From Aliihoeflea aestuarii (GTDB lineage Bacteria; Pseudomonadota; Alphaproteobacteria; Rhizobiales; Rhizobiaceae), in NCBI RefSeq assembly GCF_024105665.1, contig NZ_JAAAMK010000006.1, positions 1-64,000 on the forward strand: DNA of 64,000 bases, read 5' to 3'. The notes beneath the pieces were generated by a model, which had not been told where the DNA came from, made no database searches, and worked only from the letters and a program-made list of their open reading frames with translations. Shown one piece after another: positions 5,001-63,242 of the stretch. The translations under genes and the position numbers were made by a program. The number at the start of each line of letters is the position of its first letter. Within the stretch, counting starts at the first letter, position 1.

Positions 5001-7049
5001 ATGAGCGCAACGCAGATGGGTGGCAGTGACGTCGATATCGATCTTCGACGCCTCGCGATAAGCGTGCGCGAGCGGTGGCGCATGATCCTGTCCGTCGCAT
5101 TGCTTGCCGGGCTCGCGGGCTTCCTTTTCGTCTATTTCTCGACCCCTCTCTATCGCGCCGAAACGCGCATTTTGATCGAGGCGCGCGAATCCGCCTATAC
5201 GCGCACCGCCGGGCAGGGCGACGGCGAACGGCCGATCTTCGACGACGAGGGCGTCACCAGCCAGGTCGAAGTGATCCGTTCCAGCGATATCCTGCGCCAG
5301 GTCGCAGACGATCTCGGCCTTTCCGAGCGCAGCGAGTTCCAGGCGAGCGGCCTCATGGTCCGGCTCGGTTTGCGCACGCCGGACGAGCTTATGCGCGACC
5401 AGCAGACCATCGACATCATGCGCGAGAAGCTCGACGTCTACCGGGTGGAAAACTCGCGCGTCATCGTCATCCGCTTTTCCTCGCTGGACAGGCAATTGGC
5501 GGCCGATGTGCCGAACGCGATCGCGGACGCCTATATCGAAGAGCAGCGCGCGGCAAAGCTCTTGTCGAATGAAGACGCGACTGGCTGGCTCGCGCCGGAG
5601 ATTGCCGATCTTCGCGACCGCGTGCGCGATGCGGAAGCGGCCGTCGCCGCGTTTCGCGCCGATACGGGTCTTCTGATCGGACAGAACAATTCGACGCTGA
5701 CCAGCCAGCAACTGTCGGAGCTTTCGTCGGAACTTTCGCGCGTGCGTGCAAGCCGCTCGCAGGCCGAGTCGCGCGCCGAAGGCGTTCGCCAGGCGCTTGA
5801 AACGGGAGGCTCTCTCGAAGCGGTTCCCGAAGTGCTCAATTCTTCGGTCGTTCAGCGCCTTCGCGAGCGGGAAGGGCAGTTGCAGGCGGAAATCGCCGAC
5901 CTGTCGACGACGTTGCTCGACAATCACCCGCGCCTGCGCGGCCTTCGCTCGCAGCTTGCCGATATTTCCAATCGTGTGCGTGAGGAGGCGCGGACCGTTC
6001 TCGTCAGCCTCGAAAACGAGGCGCTTGCCGCCCAGCGCGTCGAAGCACGCCTGCAAGGCGAACTCGATGCACTGAAGGCAACCTCCGCGACGGCCGGCTC
6101 CGAGGAAGTCGAACTGCGCGCGCTGGAGCGTGAAGCCACGGCCCAGCGCGAGTTGCTCGAATCCTATCTGACGCGGTTTCGCGAGGCGAGTGCGCGCGGC
6201 GACCGCAACTATCTTCCCGTCGATGCCCGCGTCTTCGCCCGTGCGACGCCTCCGGTCTCCTCCTACTATCCAAGGCTCGTGCCGATCGTCGGCGCGGCCT
6301 TCGCCGGATCGCTTCTCATCATGATCATCGGCACGCTTCTCGGTGAACTGTTCAGCGGCCGCGCGATGCGCCCCGCTCCGCAGGCGAGCCGCGCTGAGCC
6401 GGTGCCGCATCTGGCCATGCCCGCCGCCGCTTCCATGGACACGCCGGAAGGCGAAACGCCGCTCGATCTCTCGGTGCAGACAGCGGCCGCGCATCTGATC
6501 GCCACGGATGCCGCACGGGCGGTGTTTCTGTCGCCGGAAGGCGAGGAAGCGTCCACGGCATCAGTAATGGTGGCCCGGGAACTCGCCGACGCCGGCATAC
6601 GGGTGCTCTACCTCGACCTGACCGTGTCGGGCACGCCGTCGAGCTACATGCTGGAAAGCCGCATCTATACCGGCATCACCAATCTTCTGGCGGCCGAGGC
6701 ACAGTTCACCGAAACGATCCATGGCGATCTTTATTCGGATTGCCACGTCATTCCGGTGGGAACGGCGGAGGCTCGAAGGGCCATGCGGGCGGCCGACCGG
6801 TTGCCGATCATACTGACGTCGCTGACCACCGCTTACGACATCGTCGTCATCGAATGCGGGCCGACGCAGATCGACGGCCTGCGCCGCGTCATGGGACAGG
6901 CGACCGAGATATTGATCGGAGCGATCGACGGACAGGATCATCGCGTCGAGAAGATCGCGCGCAGCCTCTTCGAGGCCGGCTACGGCGAAGCGATGCGCGT
7001 CGTCCCGACCGCGCCGCTCGAACGCGATGCGAGCCGCACGGTCGCGTAG
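5001..7049 (+). CDS. Wzz/ExoP-like polysaccharide chain-length and transport protein
   Basis: This 682-residue inner-membrane protein controls chain length and export of exopolysaccharide in partnership with the Wza-like lipoprotein divergent to it. An N-terminal transmembrane helix (about residues 30-48) is followed by a Wzz domain and a long coiled-coil region. A second helix lies near residues 425-445, and the C-terminal cytoplasmic domain resembles a BY-kinase. That domain is degenerate: around residue 510 the Walker A site reads SPEGEEASTASV with no GK[ST], the Walker A' site is YLDLTVSG, and there is no C-terminal tyrosine cluster. The ATG at 5001 has GGAG upstream; an earlier ATG at 4959 falls within a palindrome. 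Confidence 0.85.
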   Translation: MSATQMGGSDVDIDLRRLAISVRERWRMILSVALLAGLAGFLFVYFSTPLYRAETRILIEARESAYTRTAGQGDGERPIFDDEGVTSQVEVIRSSDILRQVADDLGLSERSEFQASGLMVRLGLRTPDELMRDQQTIDIMREKLDVYRVENSRVIVIRFSSLDRQLAADVPNAIADAYIEEQRAAKLLSNEDATGWLAPEIADLRDRVRDAEAAVAAFRADTGLLIGQNNSTLTSQQLSELSSELSRVRASRSQAESRAEGVRQALETGGSLEAVPEVLNSSVVQRLREREGQLQAEIADLSTTLLDNHPRLRGLRSQLADISNRVREEARTVLVSLENEALAAQRVEARLQGELDALKATSATAGSEEVELRALEREATAQRELLESYLTRFREASARGDRNYLPVDARVFARATPPVSSYYPRLVPIVGAAFAGSLLIMIIGTLLGELFSGRAMRPAPQASRAEPVPHLAMPAAASMDTPEGETPLDLSVQTAAAHLIATDAARAVFLSPEGEEASTASVMVARELADAGIRVLYLDLTVSGTPSSYMLESRIYTGITNLLAAEAQFTETIHGDLYSDCHVIPVGTAEARRAMRAADRLPIILTSLTTAYDIVVIECGPTQIDGLRRVMGQATEILIGAIDGQDHRVEKIARSLFEAGYGEAMRVVPTAPLERDASRTVA

Positions 7050-55798: not shown

Positions 55799-55870
55799 CA
55801 CCTCTCCCCCCGCCTGGGGGAGAGGTGGCCCGAAGGGTCGGAGTGGGGGTTGTTCGCTGCCGTAAGCGAA
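55799..55870. repeat. Palindromic repeat between soeA and soeB
   Basis: A 12-bp stem, CACCTCTCCCCC with GGGGGAGAGGTG (55799-55827), is followed by GGCCCGAAGGGTCGGAGTGG, a layout familiar from rhizobial intergenic repeats. A second small hairpin (TTCGCT and AGCGAA, 55853-55870) follows. The family differs from that at 49692 and 56672. Confidence 0.8.
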
Positions 55871-55881
55871 GAGGCGTTCGC

Positions 55882-56643
55882 ATGACCTCGCTTCCCTCTC
55901 TCCCAACCCCCAAAAAGCTCGGACTCGTCATCGATCTCGACATCTGCGTCGGCTGCCATGCCTGCGTCGTTTCGTGCAAGGAATGGAACACGGGCGGCTA
56001 TGGCGCGGCCCTGTCCGACCAGGACCCTTACGGCGCCGATGTGTCCGGCACCTTCCTCAACCGGATTCACTCCTTCGAAGTCCTTCCGGAAGGCGCTGAA
56101 AAGATTGGCGAAGCGGGCGATGCGCGCATCGTGCATTTCCCGAAGTCCTGCCTGCATTGCGAAGACGCACCGTGCGTCACGGTCTGCCCGACCGGCGCGT
56201 CCTACAAGCGGGCCGACGATGGCATCGTGCTGGTCGATGAGGATATGTGCATCGGCTGCGGCCTGTGTGCATGGGCCTGTCCATACGGCGCGCGTGAGAT
56301 GGACGTCGCCGCCGGCGTCATGAAGAAATGCACGCTCTGCATCGACCGCATCTACAACGAGACGATGGAGGAAGTGGACCGCGTTCCCTCCTGCGTGCGC
56401 ACCTGCCCGACAAATGCGCGCCATTATGGCGATCTGGCCGATCCCACCTCCGGTGTTTCGAAGATGGTCGCCGCGCGCGGCGGGATCGACCTTATGCCGG
56501 AGCAGGGGACGAAACCGGTCAACAAATATCTGCCGCCGCGCCCGCGAAAGCCGTTGGCCGAAAGCGCGATGCCGCTCGCGGAAAACTCGCCCGCCGCCAG
56601 CGGTTTCTTCGCGTGGCTCGACGGTATGCTGGAGCGAATCTGA
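55882..56643 (+). CDS. soeB: Ferredoxin-like [4Fe-4S] subunit, probable SoeB
   Basis: This 253-residue electron-transfer subunit carries four [4Fe-4S] Cys clusters, visible as DICVGCHACVVSCKEWN, SCLHCEDAPCVTVCPTGAS, DMCIGCGLCAWACPYGARE, and KCTLCIDRIY together with CVRTCPTNARHYG. It passes electrons between the molybdenum subunit and the membrane subunit. The ATG at 55882 has GAGG upstream; the gap to soeA is filled by a palindromic repeat. Confidence 0.87.
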   Translation: MTSLPSLPTPKKLGLVIDLDICVGCHACVVSCKEWNTGGYGAALSDQDPYGADVSGTFLNRIHSFEVLPEGAEKIGEAGDARIVHFPKSCLHCEDAPCVTVCPTGASYKRADDGIVLVDEDMCIGCGLCAWACPYGAREMDVAAGVMKKCTLCIDRIYNETMEEVDRVPSCVRTCPTNARHYGDLADPTSGVSKMVAARGGIDLMPEQGTKPVNKYLPPRPRKPLAESAMPLAENSPAASGFFAWLDGMLERI

Positions 56644-56671
56644 TGGCCGGAAACAGCAGTTCTCTAAGTTA

Positions 56672-56783
56672 CCCCTCTCTGTCCTGCCGGACATCTCCCC
56701 CGCATGGGGGGAGATCACGCTCGTCATCGATGCAGGCTAATCTCGCCACTTGCGGGGGAGATGTCCGGCTGGACAGAGGGGGG
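56672..56783. repeat. Palindromic repeat between soeB and soeC
   Basis: Imperfect arms, CCCCTCTCTGTCCTGCCGG at the left and CCGGCTGGACAGAGGGG at the right, flank internal hairpins (ATCTCCCCC paired with GGGGGGAGAT, and the similar GGGGGAGAT further right). It belongs to the same family as the repeat at 49692-49840. Confidence 0.85.
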
Positions 56784-56824
56784 CGCGTAAGGGCCGCAGC
56801 ATTAACAGTTTTTCGGACGATCTG

Positions 56825-57751
56825 ATGCACCCCGCGCTTTCCATCATCGTTTTCACTACGCTTTCCGGTTTCGGGTATGGGCTTGCGGCGGTTCTCGGCT
56901 TCGGTCTTCTCGACCCGCAGTTCGTCGCCACCAAGATCGCGCACATCCTTGCGCTGTTCCTGATCGCTGGCGGGCTTGCGTCCTCGACGCTCCATCTGGG
57001 CAATCCGCAACGCGCGTGGCGGGCCTTATCGCAATGGCGAACGAGTTGGCTGTCGCGCGAGGGCGTGCTGGCGATCGCGACTTTCATCCCGCTCTGCATC
57101 GCAGCCTACGGCGCAATCTTCCACGATCGCTACTTGCCGCTGCCGGGGATCATCGGCGCGATCATGTCCGGTATCACCGTCTACTGCACGTCGATGATCT
57201 ACGCCTCGATGAAGTCCGTTCAGGCATGGCACACGCGGCTGACCCCAGCCACCTATCTGTTGTTTTCGGGAGCGGGCGGTGCTTTGCTGGGTGTCGTCTT
57301 CGCAGTCATCAGCGGTTCGGGCGTGCTGTTCCTGATGTTTCTGTCCGTAATTTTCCTTGCGGCCGCATGGGCCGTGAAGTCGCGCTGGCGGCGACGGATG
57401 GAAAGGATGCAGCCGCTGTCCACGCCTGAAAGCGCGACGGGTCTCGGTTTCATCGGCGAGGTGCGCCTGTTCGAGCGGCCGCACACAAACGACAATTATC
57501 TGACCCGGGAAATGGGGTTCCAGATCGCGCGCAAGCACGCGGCCAAGCTCGTCCAGATGAGCTACATGCTCGGCGGCGTCGTTCCCGTCGTCTTGCTGAT
57601 GCTGACATTGGTTGCGGGTGCCGCCGCTTATGCAGTAGCCATCACGTTCGTCACGCTTGCCGTGATCGCGCATTTCGCAGGCGTGTTCGTGGAACGCTGG
57701 CTGTTTTTCGCCGAGGCGCGCCATGCCGTCATGAATTACTACGGACGGTGA
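56825..57751 (+). CDS. soeC: Membrane anchor subunit (DmsC/NrfD family), probable SoeC
   Basis: This 308-residue protein has about eight transmembrane helices and the DmsC family layout (PALSIIVFTTLSGFGYGLAA, LASSTLHLGNPQRAWRALSQ). It should anchor the catalytic and ferredoxin-like subunits to the inner membrane and exchange electrons with quinone. The ATG at 56825 follows the repeat at 56672-56783. The stop is only 10 bp from that of the convergent lpxXL gene. Confidence 0.87.
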   Translation: MHPALSIIVFTTLSGFGYGLAAVLGFGLLDPQFVATKIAHILALFLIAGGLASSTLHLGNPQRAWRALSQWRTSWLSREGVLAIATFIPLCIAAYGAIFHDRYLPLPGIIGAIMSGITVYCTSMIYASMKSVQAWHTRLTPATYLLFSGAGGALLGVVFAVISGSGVLFLMFLSVIFLAAAWAVKSRWRRRMERMQPLSTPESATGLGFIGEVRLFERPHTNDNYLTREMGFQIARKHAAKLVQMSYMLGGVVPVVLLMLTLVAGAAAYAVAITFVTLAVIAHFAGVFVERWLFFAEARHAVMNYYGR

Positions 57752-57761
57752 GACGTAAAAC

Positions 57762-58703
57762 TCAGTCGGCCCAGCGCTTGTGGAACCACATCCACTGGCC
57801 GGGATGCTCGCGCACCCAGCCTTCGACGATGTCGTTCATCATCTGGCAGCTTGCATGGATATCGATTGCGCCGGCTTCGTTGCGCGGCAGTTCGATCTTG
57901 TCCTGAAGTTCCAACCGGAAACGATTGCCCGGCAAACGAATCGAGCGGGCCGGATAGACGTCGCACTCGAATTGCCGCGCAAGCTTCGGGACCAGCGGGT
58001 TGGTGCGGCATTCGCGCCCGAAGAAGGTCGTTTTCTGGCCCTTGTGGAATTTCTGATCGACCAGAACGCCGACATTGCCGCCTCTGTCGAGCACGCGGGC
58101 GAGCGCGAAGGCGGCCCCTGCGCGCGAGGCGAGCAGGTCGCCCATCGTGTCGCGGCGCGTGTTGAGGATGTATTCGGCCATATACGGGTTGTTCGGCGCG
58201 CGGAACAATGCGGTCACCGGCAGGTCGTAGGCCGCCGCCGCGATCGGCAGAAGTTCGAAATTTCCCGAATGCGCGGTGAAGATGATGTGCGGGCGTTTCT
58301 CCTCGCGGATGCGCAGGAAAATCTCCTCGCCGATCACCTCGGTCCGGCCCGGCGGCATGCCCGGCTCGTGATCGAATATCTGGTCGAGAAAGACGTATTC
58401 GGCGGCCAGCCGCGCCATGTTGCCCCACATGTCGGAGGCGATTTCGGCGATTTCGGTTTCGCTCTTTTCAGGATAGGCGCGCCTCAGATTGTCGATGGCG
58501 ACCTTGTGGCGGCTGACCTTGGGGCCGATCCGGCGCGCCGTGCGGTCAGCAAAATCGAGCGCCTTGTCGGCGGGCAGCTTGCGCAGCCCCCAAAGAATAC
58601 CCATCGCCAGCCGCGCGGTCGTCCAGTGCTCGGCGGTCTTCAGCGCGCCGGCGAACCGATAGGCCAGCGGCCGCAGGAAGCCCGGCAGCCGGTCGCCCTT
58701 CAT
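57762..58703 (-). CDS. lpxXL: Lipid A very-long-chain acyltransferase (LpxXL)
   Basis: This is a 313-residue HtrB/LpxL-family acyltransferase. The catalytic HX4E motif is HSGNFE (H145, E150), with downstream RAPNNPYMAEYI, NVGVLVDQKFHKGQKTTFFGRE and a C-terminal WMWFHKRW. In rhizobia LpxXL transfers the 27-hydroxyoctacosanoate (or related) chain from AcpXL to lipid A. Position at the end of the acpXL block supports that assignment over a general LpxL. It overlaps the dehydrogenase gene by 4 bp. Confidence 0.9.
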   Translation of the reverse strand: MKGDRLPGFLRPLAYRFAGALKTAEHWTTARLAMGILWGLRKLPADKALDFADRTARRIGPKVSRHKVAIDNLRRAYPEKSETEIAEIASDMWGNMARLAAEYVFLDQIFDHEPGMPPGRTEVIGEEIFLRIREEKRPHIIFTAHSGNFELLPIAAAAYDLPVTALFRAPNNPYMAEYILNTRRDTMGDLLASRAGAAFALARVLDRGGNVGVLVDQKFHKGQKTTFFGRECRTNPLVPKLARQFECDVYPARSIRLPGNRFRLELQDKIELPRNEAGAIDIHASCQMMNDIVEGWVREHPGQWMWFHKRWAD

Positions 58704-59728
58704 GACACGCGCAGGATGATCTTGCCGAAGACATCGCGGCCTTCCATGCGCTGCAAGGCGGTGTCGATGCCGTCGAAATCGACTTCCGTGTCGATAACCG
58801 GCGAAACGTGGCCGGCGGCCATTTTCTGCATGGCATCCGCCATGTTCTCCATCCGGCAGCCGAAGGAGCCGAGGATTTTCAGTTGCTGCTGGAAAAGCTG
58901 CATCAGGTTCATCGAGGTCGACACGCCGGAGGTCGAGCCGCAGGTGACGAGCCGCCCGCCGCGCTTCATGCACAGCATGGAGCGCGCCCATGTGTCCGCG
59001 CCGACATGCTCGAAGACGACATCAACGCCCTTTTTCTTCGTCAGCTTGCGCACCACGCCTTCGAAGCGGTCGTCGCGATAATTGATGACGTGATCGGCAC
59101 CCAGCGCCTTCGCCTTCTCGATCTTGGCGTCGGAACCGACGGTGGTGATGATCGTGCAGCCCATGCGCCTGGCAAGCTGGATCGCGGCCGAGCCGATTCC
59201 CGAACCGCCCGCATGGATGAGGATCGTCTCGCCCGGCTGGAGTTTCGCATTGTCGAACAGCATGTGCTCGACCGTACCGAAGGTGACGGGCGCGACCGCC
59301 GCGCCGATCTCGTCGACGCCGGGCGGGGCCGGGACCAAAAGGCGCGCCGGCAGGTTCATCTTTTCCTGCGCGAAGCCGTCGAGATGGAAGCCGTGGACGC
59401 CCGAGACGTGTTCGCACAGATTGTCGCGCTTTTCCCGGCAGGCCTTGCAAAGGCCGCAGGTCCGCGCGCCGTAGATCGAGACGAGCTGTCCTTCACGAAG
59501 GTTGGAGACGCCCGGTCCGACCCGGATGACCTCGCCCGAGGCTTCCGCACCGACGGTAATCGGCATCTTGCGCTTGGCGAAGGCCATGCCGCGCCAGCCC
59601 CACACGTCGATATGGTTGAGCGCGACGGCGCGGATGCGCAGCGTGACCTCACCCTGGCCGGGCGCACCGGGCTCGGCAATGTCGACGGTTTCGAGGCGGC
59701 GATCCTCGATCAGTTGCAATGCGCGCAT
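58700..59728 (-). CDS. Zinc-type alcohol dehydrogenase of the acpXL block
   Basis: This is a 342-residue medium-chain dehydrogenase/reductase. The structural-zinc Cys cluster is visible in YGARTCGLCKACREKRDNLC, the nucleotide-binding site is in IHAGGSGIGSAAIQLARR, and KILGSFGCRMEN follows. It is normally found in the rhizobial acpXL-lpxXL operon and is thought to act in synthesis or modification of the very-long acyl chain, perhaps as an enoyl or alcohol reductase. The ATG at 59728 has GAGGA just upstream. It overlaps lpxXL by 4 bp. Confidence 0.88.
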   Translation of the reverse strand: MRALQLIEDRRLETVDIAEPGAPGQGEVTLRIRAVALNHIDVWGWRGMAFAKRKMPITVGAEASGEVIRVGPGVSNLREGQLVSIYGARTCGLCKACREKRDNLCEHVSGVHGFHLDGFAQEKMNLPARLLVPAPPGVDEIGAAVAPVTFGTVEHMLFDNAKLQPGETILIHAGGSGIGSAAIQLARRMGCTIITTVGSDAKIEKAKALGADHVINYRDDRFEGVVRKLTKKKGVDVVFEHVGADTWARSMLCMKRGGRLVTCGSTSGVSTSMNLMQLFQQQLKILGSFGCRMENMADAMQKMAAGHVSPVIDTEVDFDGIDTALQRMEGRDVFGKIILRVS

Positions 59729-59817
59729 GAAATTCCTCACTTAGCCAAACGAAGCAGGACAGTGCCAGAGGGGGCAAAATCGGGCGCAAACTGAGCCCGC
59801 GTCTTGGAAAAGGCCAC

Positions 59818-61086
59818 CTAGAACGGTTCGCGCGCCATGACAAGGCACGTATTCTGGCCGCCGAACCCAAAGGAATTCGACAGGACCGTCTTCACATCGG
59901 CGTCCCGCTTGACGTTGGGCACGACGTCGAGATCGATCGCCGGGTCGGGATTGTCGTAATTGATCGTCGGCGGCAGCACGCCTTCGCGCATCGTCATGAG
60001 CGAGAAGACCGCTTCGACGGCGCCGGCGGCCGAGAGCGTGTGGCCGATCATTGATTTGTTGGACGAGACGGGCATGCGCTTCAAATGGTCGCCGAAGACG
60101 GTCGAGAGCGACAAATGCTCCATCTTGTCGTTTTCGGGCGTCGAGGTGCCGTGCGCGTTGACGTAGGAGATGCCGTCCTGGCCGAGGCCGGCATCGTCGA
60201 GCGCCGCGCGGATCGCGCCGATGGCAGGCGAGCCGTCCGGCTTGGAGCGCGTGCGGTGAAAATCGTCAGCCTTTTCCCCGCAGCCGCGCAGGACGCCCAG
60301 CACCGTCGCGCCGCGCGCTTTCGCGCTTTCCAGCGATTCCAGAACGAGCGCCGCGCCACCTTCGGCCAGCACGAAGCCGTCCCGATCTTTGGAGAATGGC
60401 TTCGAAGCTTTCGTGGGGTCGTCATTTGCCGTGGACAGCGCGGACAGAAGCGAAAACCGGATCAGTGCCTCGGCCGTTGCCGAACCGTCCGCGCCAATGG
60501 CCAGCGCACGCTCGCATTCGCCGCGCCGGATCGCCTCGACGCCGAGCTGGATCGCGGTCGCGCCCGAGGCGCAGGCCGTGGACAGCGTGATCGGCATGCC
60601 GCGCGTGCCGTATTTGTCGGCCAGCCGGTCGGCGATGGTGGCGAATTGCGCGTCCTCGAAGACCCTCGCGGTCAACCGTTCCCGCGCGACCTTCAGGAGG
60701 CGCTGGTAGCCCTGTTCCTCGTCGTCCGATGCGTAGAGCGACAGGCGATCCTGCCAGCCGAGCTCGACGGGCGGGGAGGCGAGGAATAGCGGTCCGTCGA
60801 ATGCGCTTCGCGAGATGCCGGATGCGCCGATCGCCTCGTCGGCTGCCAGATCCGCCAGTTCCAGCGTCAGCGCGGACGCGCCCTTGCTGCTCGAATCGAG
60901 ATAGTCGACCGTCCCGCAAATGGTGGTGGCGAGGTGGTCGATCGGAAAGCGCGCGATGGGGTGGATGCCCGAGCGACCTGAGGTGAGCGCCGTCCAATTG
61001 TCCGTAACGCCCTGGCCGAGCGACGTGACGACGCCGATGCCGGTGACGGCGACGATAGGACGTCCCAGATGATCCGTGGTCTTCAC
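59818..61086 (-). CDS. fabF1XL: Beta-ketoacyl-ACP synthase of the acpXL block (catalytic)
   Basis: This 422-residue KAS II-type condensing enzyme keeps the full catalytic set: C172 in TLSTACASGATAI, H312 in VNAHGTSTPEND, K344 and H349 in SSNKSMIGHTLSAAGA. It should elongate acyl chains on AcpXL towards C28. A GTG start at 61086 is preceded by GAGGAGA. The overlapping arrangement with the second ketosynthase-like gene (the stop of that gene is in the same Shine-Dalgarno area) links the pair. The symbol follows the usual rhizobial order and is tentative as to number. Confidence 0.88.
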   Translation of the reverse strand: MKTTDHLGRPIVAVTGIGVVTSLGQGVTDNWTALTSGRSGIHPIARFPIDHLATTICGTVDYLDSSSKGASALTLELADLAADEAIGASGISRSAFDGPLFLASPPVELGWQDRLSLYASDDEEQGYQRLLKVARERLTARVFEDAQFATIADRLADKYGTRGMPITLSTACASGATAIQLGVEAIRRGECERALAIGADGSATAEALIRFSLLSALSTANDDPTKASKPFSKDRDGFVLAEGGAALVLESLESAKARGATVLGVLRGCGEKADDFHRTRSKPDGSPAIGAIRAALDDAGLGQDGISYVNAHGTSTPENDKMEHLSLSTVFGDHLKRMPVSSNKSMIGHTLSAAGAVEAVFSLMTMREGVLPPTINYDNPDPAIDLDVVPNVKRDADVKTVLSNSFGFGGQNTCLVMAREPF

Positions 61087-61097
61087 GTCGATCTCCT

Positions 61098-62285
61098 CTA
61101 CGCCTTCGAAAGGGACGCCGCGCCCTCGAAACGATTGTAGCCGATCGCGGTGGCGACGACGCGTTCGGGAGATCTGGAGGCCGGTGTCTCGTTTTCAGGA
61201 TCGAAGGGCGGATAGGCCGCGTCGTTCGTCAAAGCCAGCGCGGCGAGCGCGACCGCGAACGGAAACTGCGCTTCCTTCATGTGGCCGGTCAGCGTCGAGA
61301 AGGCGCGGACCGCGTGGCTGCCCTGTTCGCGCAACGCCAGTCGTTCGGCGCCGGTCGCGGCATGCGCGCCGGATGCGCCCGAAATGACGAGTTCCGTTCC
61401 GTCCACATCGGGCAATGAGCGCAACAAGCCGGAAACGGCCGCGGCAAAATCGGTGTCCTGCCGGCGCGCCCGCCCGGACGCGACCGCGTCGATCCGGGCA
61501 TAGGCCGTGCGACCGCGCTTTTCGGCATGATCGCGGGATTCCAGCACGAGAAACGCGCCGCCCGATCCGGTGATGACGCCGCCGCCGTCGTTCGCGCCGC
61601 GTTGCCAGACGGACTTCCAGCGCTTGCGGTGAAGATAGCCGCCCAGTTCGTAGCCGAGCAGCATGTCCGGGTGTTCGGTCTGGAAAGCGCCGCCGACGAG
61701 AAGGTGCGAGGACTGGCCCGAGCGGATGCGCGCGGCGGCCGTCTCGATCGCGGCTACGCCCGCGCCCTCCTCGCCCATGAAAGTACGCGAGGAGCCCGTC
61801 ACCTTGTGGACGATGGAAATGTTGCCGGCGAGCAGATTGGAGAGCTGCGCGAGGAAAAGCGTCGGGCGCAGTTCCGTCGTCAGCTTCTCATTGACCAAGA
61901 GGTCGCGGTCGTTGCGCGTCAGCGACGCATCGAGAATGGCTTCGTCGACGCTCGTATCGCGTTCGCCCCCGCCCGCCGCCACGATCATGTCCATCGAGGC
62001 GCAAAGCGCTTCGTCGTCCTTGATTCCGGCATCGGCAAGCGCCAGCCCGGCCGTATAGGTGCCGAGCCGCTGCCAGGTTTCCATCTGGCGCTGGTCGCCG
62101 CGCTTGGGAATCTGTTGGCTCCAGTCAAGCTGGGGCAGGGGGTGCACGGTGTAGGGCGCGAAGCGCTCGCCGTCGAAGACGGCTTTGGCGTTGCCTGACG
62201 ACAGCACCGACCAGTGCGTGTCCGTTCCTTCGCCGAGGCAGGAAACCAGACCGATTCCAGTGATGACGACGTCGTTCGCTGTCAT
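61098..62285 (-). CDS. fabF2XL: Ketosynthase-like protein of the acpXL block with degenerate active site
   Basis: This is a 395-residue protein with a clear thiolase/ketosynthase fold (VVITGIGLVSCLGEGTDTHW, GGAFLVLESRDHAEKRGRTA). However, the nucleophile region reads SSRTFMGEEGAGVAAI, so the Cys position holds Glu (about E173). The first catalytic His is missing (ISGASGAHAATG), and the position equivalent to the catalytic Lys is Ser in FSTLTGHM, which keeps only H335. It probably serves as a non-catalytic, chain-length-setting partner of the adjacent canonical ketosynthase. It lies 15 bp downstream of acpXL, where fabZXL is usual. ATG at 62285. Confidence 0.82.
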   Translation of the reverse strand: MTANDVVITGIGLVSCLGEGTDTHWSVLSSGNAKAVFDGERFAPYTVHPLPQLDWSQQIPKRGDQRQMETWQRLGTYTAGLALADAGIKDDEALCASMDMIVAAGGGERDTSVDEAILDASLTRNDRDLLVNEKLTTELRPTLFLAQLSNLLAGNISIVHKVTGSSRTFMGEEGAGVAAIETAAARIRSGQSSHLLVGGAFQTEHPDMLLGYELGGYLHRKRWKSVWQRGANDGGGVITGSGGAFLVLESRDHAEKRGRTAYARIDAVASGRARRQDTDFAAAVSGLLRSLPDVDGTELVISGASGAHAATGAERLALREQGSHAVRAFSTLTGHMKEAQFPFAVALAALALTNDAAYPPFDPENETPASRSPERVVATAIGYNRFEGAASLSKA

Positions 62286-62300
62286 GCGCCCGCCGTCCCG

Positions 62301-62582
62301 TCAGGCCGCCTTGGCGGCGACGAGCTGGTCGATCTTGGCGCAGAGGTTTTCCATGACGAAGTATTCCTCGGTCGAGGCCTTTCCTTCGTTGACTTCCTGC
62401 GTCCACTTTTCGAGCGGGATCTTGATCCCGAATTCCTTGTCGATCGCGAACACGATGTCGAGGAAGTCGAGCGAATCGATGCCCAGATCGTCGATCGTGT
62501 GGCTCTTCGGCGTGATGGTCTCGCGCTCGATCTCGCTCGTTTCGGCGATGATATCGGCAACCTTGTCGAATGTGGCTGTCAC
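62301..62582 (-). CDS. acpXL: Acyl carrier protein AcpXL
   Basis: This 93-residue acyl carrier protein is longer than typical AcpP and carries the 4'-phosphopantetheine Ser (S37) in [20 protein letters not shown]. It fits AcpXL, the dedicated carrier for very-long-chain hydroxy fatty acids of rhizobial lipid A. It starts with GTG at 62582, preceded by GAGGGA. It begins the five-gene minus-strand operon acpXL, two ketosynthases, dehydrogenase, lpxXL. Confidence 0.93.
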
Positions 62583-62684: not shown

Positions 62685-63242
62685 TCAGTTGAAGACGATG
62701 CGTCCGACCGTTTGCAGGGCGCCGTCATGGGCGGTGACGATGATCGCTTCGCCTTCGCGGGGCCGCGTGCCCAAAACCGCATCGACATAGCTGTCATGCG
62801 TGACCATCACGAGAATGCCCGAACCCGTATAGGCTTCGATTTCCTCGATCAGTCTTTGCCGGCGCGCATCGGCCTCCTCGCCGTCGGCGTCGAACGGATC
62901 GAGCCAGTCCACCGTTTCGACCAAGGATGCGCCGAAGGCGAGTTCGGCGGTATCCCTGGTCCGGCAGTACCTGCTGGAGAAGATCTCCTCGACCGGTGCG
63001 GCGCGCGCGGCGAAAAGCGCTCCGATTCGCCGCGCCTGCTGGCGGCCGCGCTCGGAAAGATTGCGCTGCGTGCGGCATGATTCGATGTCAAACGCGGCAG
63101 GTTCTGTGGCACCGGGAGCGTTCGCATGGTTCAAAAGCACGACCTGACCTCCGTTGCGCAGCAACGCCCATCCCGCCTCCGTCGCCGCCGCCGGAAGTGC
63201 GAGGGCAAAGGAAAGGATGGTGATGATCAAGGTGCGGTACAT
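62685..63242 (-). CDS. Periplasmic histidine-phosphatase-fold protein with altered RHG motif
   Basis: This is a 185-residue protein with a Sec signal peptide (MYRTLIITILSFALALPAAA). The phosphoglycerate-mutase-like fold is recognisable by LSERGRQQARRIGALF, IFSSRYCRTRDTAELAF and MVTHDSYVDAVLG with H149. The catalytic N-terminal motif, RHG in the family, reads NHA (N38-H39) here. The nucleophilic His is kept but the neighbouring Arg is replaced, so activity is uncertain. It stands alone, 102 bp upstream of acpXL on the same strand. Confidence 0.78.
   Translation of the reverse strand: MYRTLIITILSFALALPAAATEAGWALLRNGGQVVLLNHANAPGATEPAAFDIESCRTQRNLSERGRQQARRIGALFAARAAPVEEIFSSRYCRTRDTAELAFGASLVETVDWLDPFDADGEEADARRQRLIEEIEAYTGSGILVMVTHDSYVDAVLGTRPREGEAIIVTAHDGALQTVGRIVFN

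What the first reader, a model, noticed from the sequence alone, without database searches (positions are those of the whole stretch)
59818..62285. Ketosynthase pair in the acpXL block with one degenerate partner resembles a ketosynthase/chain-length-factor couple
The protein at 59818-61086 keeps Cys172, His312, Lys344 and His349. Its neighbour (61098-62285) has Glu near position 173 in place of the Cys, lacks the first His and has Ser in place of the Lys. Type II polyketide systems use such a pair, with the second subunit setting chain length. A KS-CLF-like heterodimer would explain how the C28 chain length of rhizobial lipid A is measured.
Basis: partly seen in the sequence, partly recalled or inferred. 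Interest (0 to 1): 0.7.

Follow-up and report, generated by a model that had tools for sequence, protein, structure and literature searches.

The report
Ketosynthase with a dead partner subunit
Next to a working fatty-acid chain-lengthening enzyme that helps build the very long lipid A chain of rhizobia and their relatives sits a look-alike that has lost key catalytic residues but is strictly conserved where such enzymes are thought to pair up, which suggests that the two form one machine in which the silent partner shapes the tunnel holding the growing chain.

Summary
The window carries acpXL-fabF2XL-fabF1XL-adhXL-lpxXL. FabF1XL keeps Cys172/His312/Lys344/His349 (119 of 119 sequences). FabF2XL has Glu/Asp for the Cys (122 of 122), never the first His or the Lys, and keeps the second His in 117 of 122. 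It is not decaying: dN/dS is 0.10-0.25 in five pairs, like FabF1XL.

Genomes with FabF2XL also have FabF1XL: 38 of 38 in the order sample; 14 of 15 in the class sample, where the exception's FabF2XL runs off a contig end. Conservation is swapped: catalytic loops are fixed in FabF1XL and free in FabF2XL, while the helix-strand segment before the nucleophile (dimer interface in relatives; partly recalled) is FabF2XL's most conserved window and variable in FabF1XL. A published mutant shows that FabF2XL is needed for the very long chain.

Best reading: an obligate KS/CLF-like heterodimer. Heterodimer and length ruler are not shown: no complex could be modelled, covariation showed nothing, and tree and fold do not file FabF2XL with known CLFs. 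A new variant of a known kind; NCBIfam names FabF2XL as a synthase.

The parts
62301..62582 (-). acpXL, dedicated acyl carrier protein (93 aa)
   Evidence: NCBIfam NF005079, 183.8 bits, cut-off 83
61098..62285 (-). fabF2XL, catalytically degenerate ketosynthase-fold subunit (395 aa)
   Evidence: NCBIfam NF005084, 609.8 bits, cut-off 320; KS fold over the whole model, pLDDT 93.3
61782..61868 (-). codons 140-168 of fabF2XL: helix-strand segment, presumed dimer interface and wall of the partner's acyl channel
   Evidence: lowest entropy of all 367 windows of its length, 0.25 bits; homologous F1 segment 1.65 bits (segment picked); interface role by homology, partly recalled
61767..61769 (-). fabF2XL Glu173 codon, in place of the nucleophilic Cys
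   Evidence: E in 119, D in 3 of 122
61371..61373 (-). fabF2XL Ser305 codon, in place of the first catalytic His
   Evidence: never His in 122
61296..61298 (-). fabF2XL Ser330 codon, in place of the catalytic Lys
   Evidence: never Lys in 122
61281..61283 (-). fabF2XL His335 codon, second catalytic His retained
   Evidence: H in 117 of 122
59818..61086 (-). fabF1XL, intact ketosynthase (422 aa, GTG start); 11 bp after fabF2XL
   Evidence: NCBIfam NF005076, 739.4 bits, cut-off 629; C172/H312/K344/H349 in 119 of 119
60571..60573 (-). fabF1XL Cys172 codon (nucleophile)
58700..59740 (-). adhXL, zinc-binding MDR-family dehydrogenase/reductase
   Evidence: Pfam ADH_zinc_N 1.8e-35; match in 79 of the 80 nearest loci (the other is a short contig)
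57762..58706 (-). lpxXL, lipid A very-long-chain acyltransferase (start approximate)
   Evidence: NCBIfam NF005120, 460.2 bits, cut-off 273; match in 77 of the 80 nearest loci (the other three are short or cut)

Best explanation
FabF1XL and FabF2XL act as an obligate heterodimeric ketosynthase that elongates AcpXL-bound acyl chains to the C26-C30 (omega-1)-hydroxy acid of lipid A. FabF1XL does all the chemistry (acyl transfer to Cys172, malonyl decarboxylation and condensation with His312/His349/Lys344). FabF2XL cannot be acylated and does not condense. Bound in the place of the second KS protomer, it presents its nearly invariant alpha5/beta5 segment (residues 140-168) to FabF1XL, completing and lengthening the acyl channel at the interface, so that a chain too long for a FabF homodimer can be held. 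Shown here: loss of the catalytic set, its conservation, purifying selection, co-occurrence, adjacency and the conservation swap. From the literature: FabF2XL is needed for the very long chain. Inferred: the heterodimer, the shared channel and any role in setting chain length.
For: Catalytic columns. Conservation swap: interface segment 0.27 bits in F2 against 1.65 in F1; NAHGTST, K/H and FGFGG loops 1.40-1.55 bits in F2 against 0.26-0.40 in F1. F2 is under purifying selection, dN/dS 0.10-0.25 in 5 pairs against 0.07-0.21 for F1. F2 and F1 occur in the same 38 of 150 genomes of the order, AcpXL in 37 of those 38; the two lie side by side on one contig in 37 of the 38, and on different contigs in the fragmented G128. 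In the class sample F2 is in 15 and F1 in 14 of 289, side by side in 14 of 14; the odd one has F2 cut by a contig end. F2 lies 11 bp before F1 in the window. Extra pairs in the three genomes looked at (G011, G096, G046) keep the same asymmetry: C/H/K/H in each of 4 F1 copies; Glu and no aligned first His in each of 4 F2 copies, one of which (G096) is short and has Gln at the second His. FabF Ile108, which gates the acyl pocket (PMC7138838, passage), aligns with Gly106 in F2, nearly invariant. In KasA the acyl channel is built by helices alpha2, alpha5, alpha9 and the partner's alpha5' (PMC9519891, passage); that F2 140-168 corresponds to alpha5 and the strand after it is my inference. In A. 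fabrum a fabF2XL mutant has no very-long-chain acid in lipid A and plasmid-borne fabF2XL partly restores it (PMC11901934, section 2.2). In Bradyrhizobium ORS278 neither fabF1XL nor fabF2XL could be disrupted (PMC5613085, passages; that paper lists fabF1XL first, so which of its two is the degenerate one was not checked). In PUFA synthases a KS-CLF didomain elongates very long C20 substrates and its CLF lacks active residues (PMC9702510, passages).
Confidence: 0.7

Rival explanations
1. FabF2XL is a non-catalytic subunit of the same enzyme, but its job is to dock AcpXL or to stabilise FabF1XL; chain length is set elsewhere, by FabF1XL's own pocket, by LpxXL selectivity or by competition for intermediates.
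For: An ACP-CLF contact is mentioned for the ishigamide proteins Iga10 and Iga12 (PMC8358021, passage). A. fabrum complemented for adhlA2XL made 26:0(25OH) in place of the minor 30:0(29OH) (PMC11901934), so length also depends on other cluster members or on expression.
Against: The most constrained part of FabF2XL is the segment that in KS dimers faces the partner and its acyl channel (partly recalled), not an evident ACP-docking face.
Confidence: 0.17
2. FabF2XL is an enzyme of another kind, for instance a malonyl-AcpXL decarboxylase that supplies the primer, as KSQ domains do with Gln in place of Cys.
For: The nucleophile column is acidic in 122 of 122 and the second His is kept in 117 of 122.
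Against: The first His and the Lys are never present and the NAHGTST, K/H and FGFGG loops are unconstrained; KSQ domains keep both His residues (recalled).
Confidence: 0.06
3. Two separate homodimers: FabF1XL condenses, FabF2XL does something unrelated in the same pathway, and the pairing in the genome reflects pathway membership only.
For: AcpXL shares the phylogenetic profile too, so co-occurrence alone does not show contact; the covariation test showed no clear enrichment.
Against: The conservation swap at the segment homologous to the KS dimer interface and the presence of extra copies of F1 and F2 as pairs.
Confidence: 0.07

Closest known systems
Type II PKS ketosynthase/chain length factor (actinorhodin KS/CLF, PDB 1TQY)
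   Same: Adjacent KS-fold pair with one member lacking catalytic residues; two annotated Streptomyces CLFs have SEQAGG where the window's FabF2XL has GEEGAG at the nucleophile. The FabF2XL profile matches 1tqy_B at 1.7e-14.
   Different: The same profile matches FabF better (E. coli FabF 9.1e-24). Product is a reduced lipid A acyl chain, not a polyketone; Glu, not Gln, at the Cys; Gly at the FabF Ile108 position, where the two Streptomyces CLFs have Phe; FabF2XL forms its own clade.
PUFA synthase KS-CLF didomain
   Same: Degenerate partner in elongation of very long reduced chains; disrupting the CLF in Schizochytrium lowered C22 PUFA (PMC9702510, passages).
   Different: Domains of a megasynthase; here two free-standing proteins with a dedicated ACP. 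No sequence comparison was made.
Aryl polyene ApeO-ApeC
   Same: Free-standing KS with a partner called a CLF, in Gram-negative bacteria (PMC8358021, passages; E. coli CFT073 genes).
   Different: ApeC is about half size, with one thiolase-fold domain (240 aa in CFT073); FabF2XL is 395 aa and keeps the fold over its whole length.
FabF/KasA homodimeric elongating ketosynthases
   Different: These are homodimers with two active sites (partly recalled); FabF2XL lacks Cys, first His and Lys.

Membership tests
FabF1XL family (NCBIfam NF005076) | score above curated cut-off 629 | tested here: met
   739.4 bits
FabF2XL family (NCBIfam NF005084, named beta-ketoacyl-ACP synthase) | score above curated cut-off 320 | tested here: met
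   609.8 bits
Functional beta-ketoacyl-ACP synthase (FabF/KAS II) | Cys-His-His plus Lys, as applied to FabF2XL | tested here: not met
   E173, S305 and S330 in the window; Cys, first His and Lys absent in 122 of 122; second His present in 117 of 122
Type II PKS CLF | KS fold without the nucleophilic Cys, encoded next to an intact KS | tested here: met
Type II PKS CLF | Gln at the nucleophile position (recalled for actinomycete CLFs; seen in two Streptomyces CLFs) | tested here: not met
   Glu or Asp in 122 of 122; SEQAGG in the two annotated CLFs, but not in the third, highly-reducing-type partner
Type II PKS CLF | common ancestry with CLFs to the exclusion of KS | tested here: inconclusive
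   F2 and 3 CLF rows lie on one side of a branch with support 88/88, unstarred, long branches meet; F1+F2 as one clade not rejected, p-AU 0.118
Type II PKS CLF | obligate heterodimer with the KS | not testable with these tools
   the structure predictor takes one chain; indirect conservation evidence only
Type II PKS CLF | residues that set product chain length | not testable with these tools
   needs mutants or in vitro assay

The most novel reading that the evidence does not exclude
Bacterial lipid A synthesis uses its own KS/CLF-like couple, possibly evolved apart from that of polyketide synthases, in which the dead subunit is the ruler: the emptied pocket of FabF2XL (Gly106 in place of the Ile gate, Glu173 in place of the acylated Cys) takes the far half of the C26-C30 chain across the dimer interface, and Glu173 or a neighbour may hold the (omega-1) hydroxyl at the end of the chain. 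That hydroxyl could itself come from a 3-hydroxybutyryl primer, since the very-long-chain acids named in the passages read (26:0(25OH), 28:0(27OH), 30:0(29OH)) are even and omega-1 and none of the five cluster genes in the window looks like a hydroxylase (inference; no test made).
Probability: 0.25. Interest if true: 0.8.

Novelty: new variant of a known kind. Interest (0 to 1): 0.6.

Why it matters
The very long acyl chain on lipid A is found in many rhizobia and relatives and matters for symbiosis and stress tolerance (PMC5613085, passages). How its length is set is not explained in the passages seen here. If FabF2XL is a CLF-like subunit, the question becomes directly testable by subunit swaps and channel mutants, a KS/CLF logic known from secondary metabolism and PUFA synthases extends to an envelope lipid, and a curated family (NF005084) named as a synthase should be renamed as a non-catalytic subunit. 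Prior mention: in the listings no title or abstract start described FabF2XL as degenerate or CLF-like; the lists were capped (15 of 92 and 12 of 21 papers shown). One search listed four papers with at least two of the terms acpXL, fabF1XL, fabF2XL. I saw passages of all four and one full section of PMC11901934: three give FabF2XL a function, as 3-oxoacyl-ACP synthase II, elongation protein or beta-ketoacyl-ACP synthase; PMC5539429 gives none in the passages seen. PMC10315480 also holds the term fabF2 and was not opened. Key subscription papers, for instance the S. meliloti gene-cluster study of 2011 (recalled), are not held, so prior mention cannot be excluded.

Full report
What is there. On the minus strand the window carries acpXL (62301-62582), fabF2XL (61098-62285), fabF1XL (59818-61086), adhXL (58700-59740) and lpxXL (57762-58706). 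AcpXL, FabF2XL, FabF1XL and LpxXL score well over the cut-offs of the NCBIfam equivalogs NF005079, NF005084, NF005076 and NF005120. The gene names are those used in PMC11901934. FabF2XL ends 11 bp before FabF1XL.

The residues. FabF1XL has Cys172, His312, Lys344 and His349; FabF2XL has Glu173, Ser305, Ser330 and His335 in those columns. In an alignment of 119 FabF1XL and 122 FabF2XL sequences with the genome's own FabF and FabB, FabF1XL is C/H/K/H in 119 of 119. FabF2XL is E 119 and D 3 at the nucleophile, S 99, T 17, C 4, N 2 at the first His, never K at the Lys, and H in 117 at the second His; the gating-loop Phe is F in 3 of 122. Most of the rows are close relatives of the window. The 12 complete class-level rows, 39-48% identical to the window, are among the 122.

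It is not a decaying gene. Nei-Gojobori dN/dS against five relatives is 0.104, 0.133, 0.105, 0.246 and 0.196 for FabF2XL and 0.069, 0.109, 0.100, 0.194 and 0.209 for FabF1XL.

The two go together. In 150 genomes of the order, 38 hold FabF2XL over the cut-off and the same 38 hold FabF1XL; 37 of them hold AcpXL, the exception (G128) being an 88%-complete genome in which FabF1XL and FabF2XL also lie on different contigs; in the other 37 the two lie side by side. In 289 genomes of the class, 15 hold FabF2XL and 14 hold FabF1XL, side by side in all 14; the one without is G374, whose FabF2XL match is partial and lies at a contig end (FabF1XL matches were taken at E below 1e-130, 8 of 14 over the curated cut-off). 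In a sample of 299 genomes of the phylum 28 held FabF2XL and all 28 are in the window's class; the output does not show how many genomes outside the class were in that sample, and FabF1XL was not searched there. Four genomes of one genus (code g14) and one other (G046) have a second match for both proteins. In the copies looked at (G011 both pairs, G096 second pair, G046 one F1 and one F2 on separate contigs) each of 4 F1 copies keeps C/H/K/H and each of 4 F2 copies has Glu and no aligned first His, with the segment LLAGNISIVHK kept; the G096 F2 copy is short (329 aa) and has Gln at the second His.

Where the constraint lies. With sequence weighting, the segment 140-168 of FabF2XL (RPTLFLAQLSNLLAGNISIVHKVTGSSRT) has the lowest entropy of all 367 windows of its length (0.25 bits; protein mean 1.49), while the homologous FabF1XL segment is variable (1.65 bits; 326th of 394 windows from the most conserved; protein mean 1.22). 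The catalytic loops show the reverse: NAHGTST loop 0.40 in F1 against 1.55 in F2, K/H loop 0.29 against 1.52, FGFGG loop 0.26 against 1.40, Cys loop 0.32 against 0.89; the gate loop is 1.24 in F1 and 0.79 in F2. Caveats: the segment was picked, and gaps count as letters, which raises the F1 value. In KS dimers this helix and strand form the two-fold interface (recalled), and in KasA the acyl channel is made by helices alpha2, alpha5, alpha9 and the partner's alpha5' (PMC9519891, passage seen). FabF Ile108, a gating residue of the acyl pocket (PMC7138838, passage seen), aligns with Gly106 in FabF2XL (nearly invariant). By the secondary-structure register of the two models it corresponds to Pro106 in FabF1XL, which is invariant in A4.

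Ancestry. In a 40-row tree FabF1XL and FabF2XL are each one clade (100/100). FabF2XL and three CLF rows lie together on one side of a branch with support 88/88, but the branches are long and the program warns of attraction; FabF1XL+FabF2XL as one clade is not rejected (p-AU 0.118). Whether FabF2XL shares its origin with polyketide CLFs is therefore open. A local likeness is noted: two aromatic-type CLFs read SEQAGG where the window's FabF2XL reads GEEGAG.

What genetics adds. In Agrobacterium fabrum a fabF2XL mutant lacks very-long-chain acids in lipid A altogether and plasmid-borne fabF2XL partly restores them (PMC11901934, section 2.2 read). I take the A. fabrum gene to be the degenerate one from its place before fabF1XL and its length (1197 bp, passages); its sequence was not seen. 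In the related Shinella locus the gene before fabF1XL begins like FabF2XL (by eye). The mutant is an insertion in an operon with fabF1XL downstream, so some polarity is possible. In Bradyrhizobium ORS278 neither fabF1XL nor fabF2XL could be disrupted, while lpxXL could (PMC5613085, passages). A catalytically empty protein that the pathway cannot do without is what a CLF-like subunit would be.

What is not shown. The heterodimer, the shared channel and the ruler are inferences. The covariation test showed no clear enrichment: 0, 1, 2 and 8 interface-interface pairs in the top 25, 50, 100 and 200 against 0.6, 1.2, 2.3 and 4.7 expected. The mutant shows need, not length control. A homodimer such as KasA can also elongate very long chains (recalled). 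I put the heterodimer with a non-catalytic FabF2XL at 0.7, and the further claim that it sets chain length at about even odds.

Novelty. The genes and their need for the very long chain are known. That FabF2XL lacks its catalytic set throughout the sequences examined and carries its constraint at the presumed interface was not stated in any passage seen here; the searches were made, two of them with capped lists, and the key subscription papers are not held. KS/CLF couples are known from type II PKS (PMC12664062, passages), aryl polyenes (PMC8358021, passages) and PUFA synthases (PMC9702510, passages). This is therefore a new variant of a known kind, and the NCBIfam name of NF005084 is probably wrong.

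Noticed in passing
window 62285-62301: No fabZXL between acpXL and fabF2XL in the window (15 bp) or in the 80 nearest loci (spacing 15-119 bp, the printed gap recomputed by hand for six loci whose match does not start at 6001); the genome's only match to a FabZXL is at 34% identity, at the place of one of its two FabA/FabZ-family genes. The absence in Mesorhizobium loti is already noted in PMC7663294; a relative in the same family (G023, L087) has the gene.
   Followed up: yes
L144 (G011:C77:8500-22500), L145 (G096:C40:1500-6500): Genus g14 carries two fabF2XL-fabF1XL pairs; the one acpXL match of G011, G059 and G096 lies beside the more diverged pair, whose F1 falls below the family cut-off, and the fabZXL-like gene in the fetched stretches of G011 and G096 lies there too.
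   Followed up: partly
window 60763-60771 (fabF1XL Pro106-Glu108) and 61962-61970 (fabF2XL Gly106-Glu108): Both partners carry a nearly invariant Glu108 in the loop that holds the acyl-pocket gate, near an invariant Pro in one and a near-invariant Gly in the other.
   Followed up: no
window 55825-57751: On the other strand, next to lpxXL, lie genes that look like the iron-sulfur and membrane-anchor subunits of a DMSO-reductase-like enzyme (by eye, from the ORF translations).
   Followed up: no
window 62685-63242: A histidine-phosphatase-family protein that begins with a hydrophobic stretch lies just upstream of acpXL on the same strand (Pfam His_Phos_1, 3e-08).
   Followed up: no
G494 (genome search): A 1.5-Mb genome of the same family, listed as 100% complete, keeps fabF2XL, so the gene survives in a small genome.
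   Followed up: no
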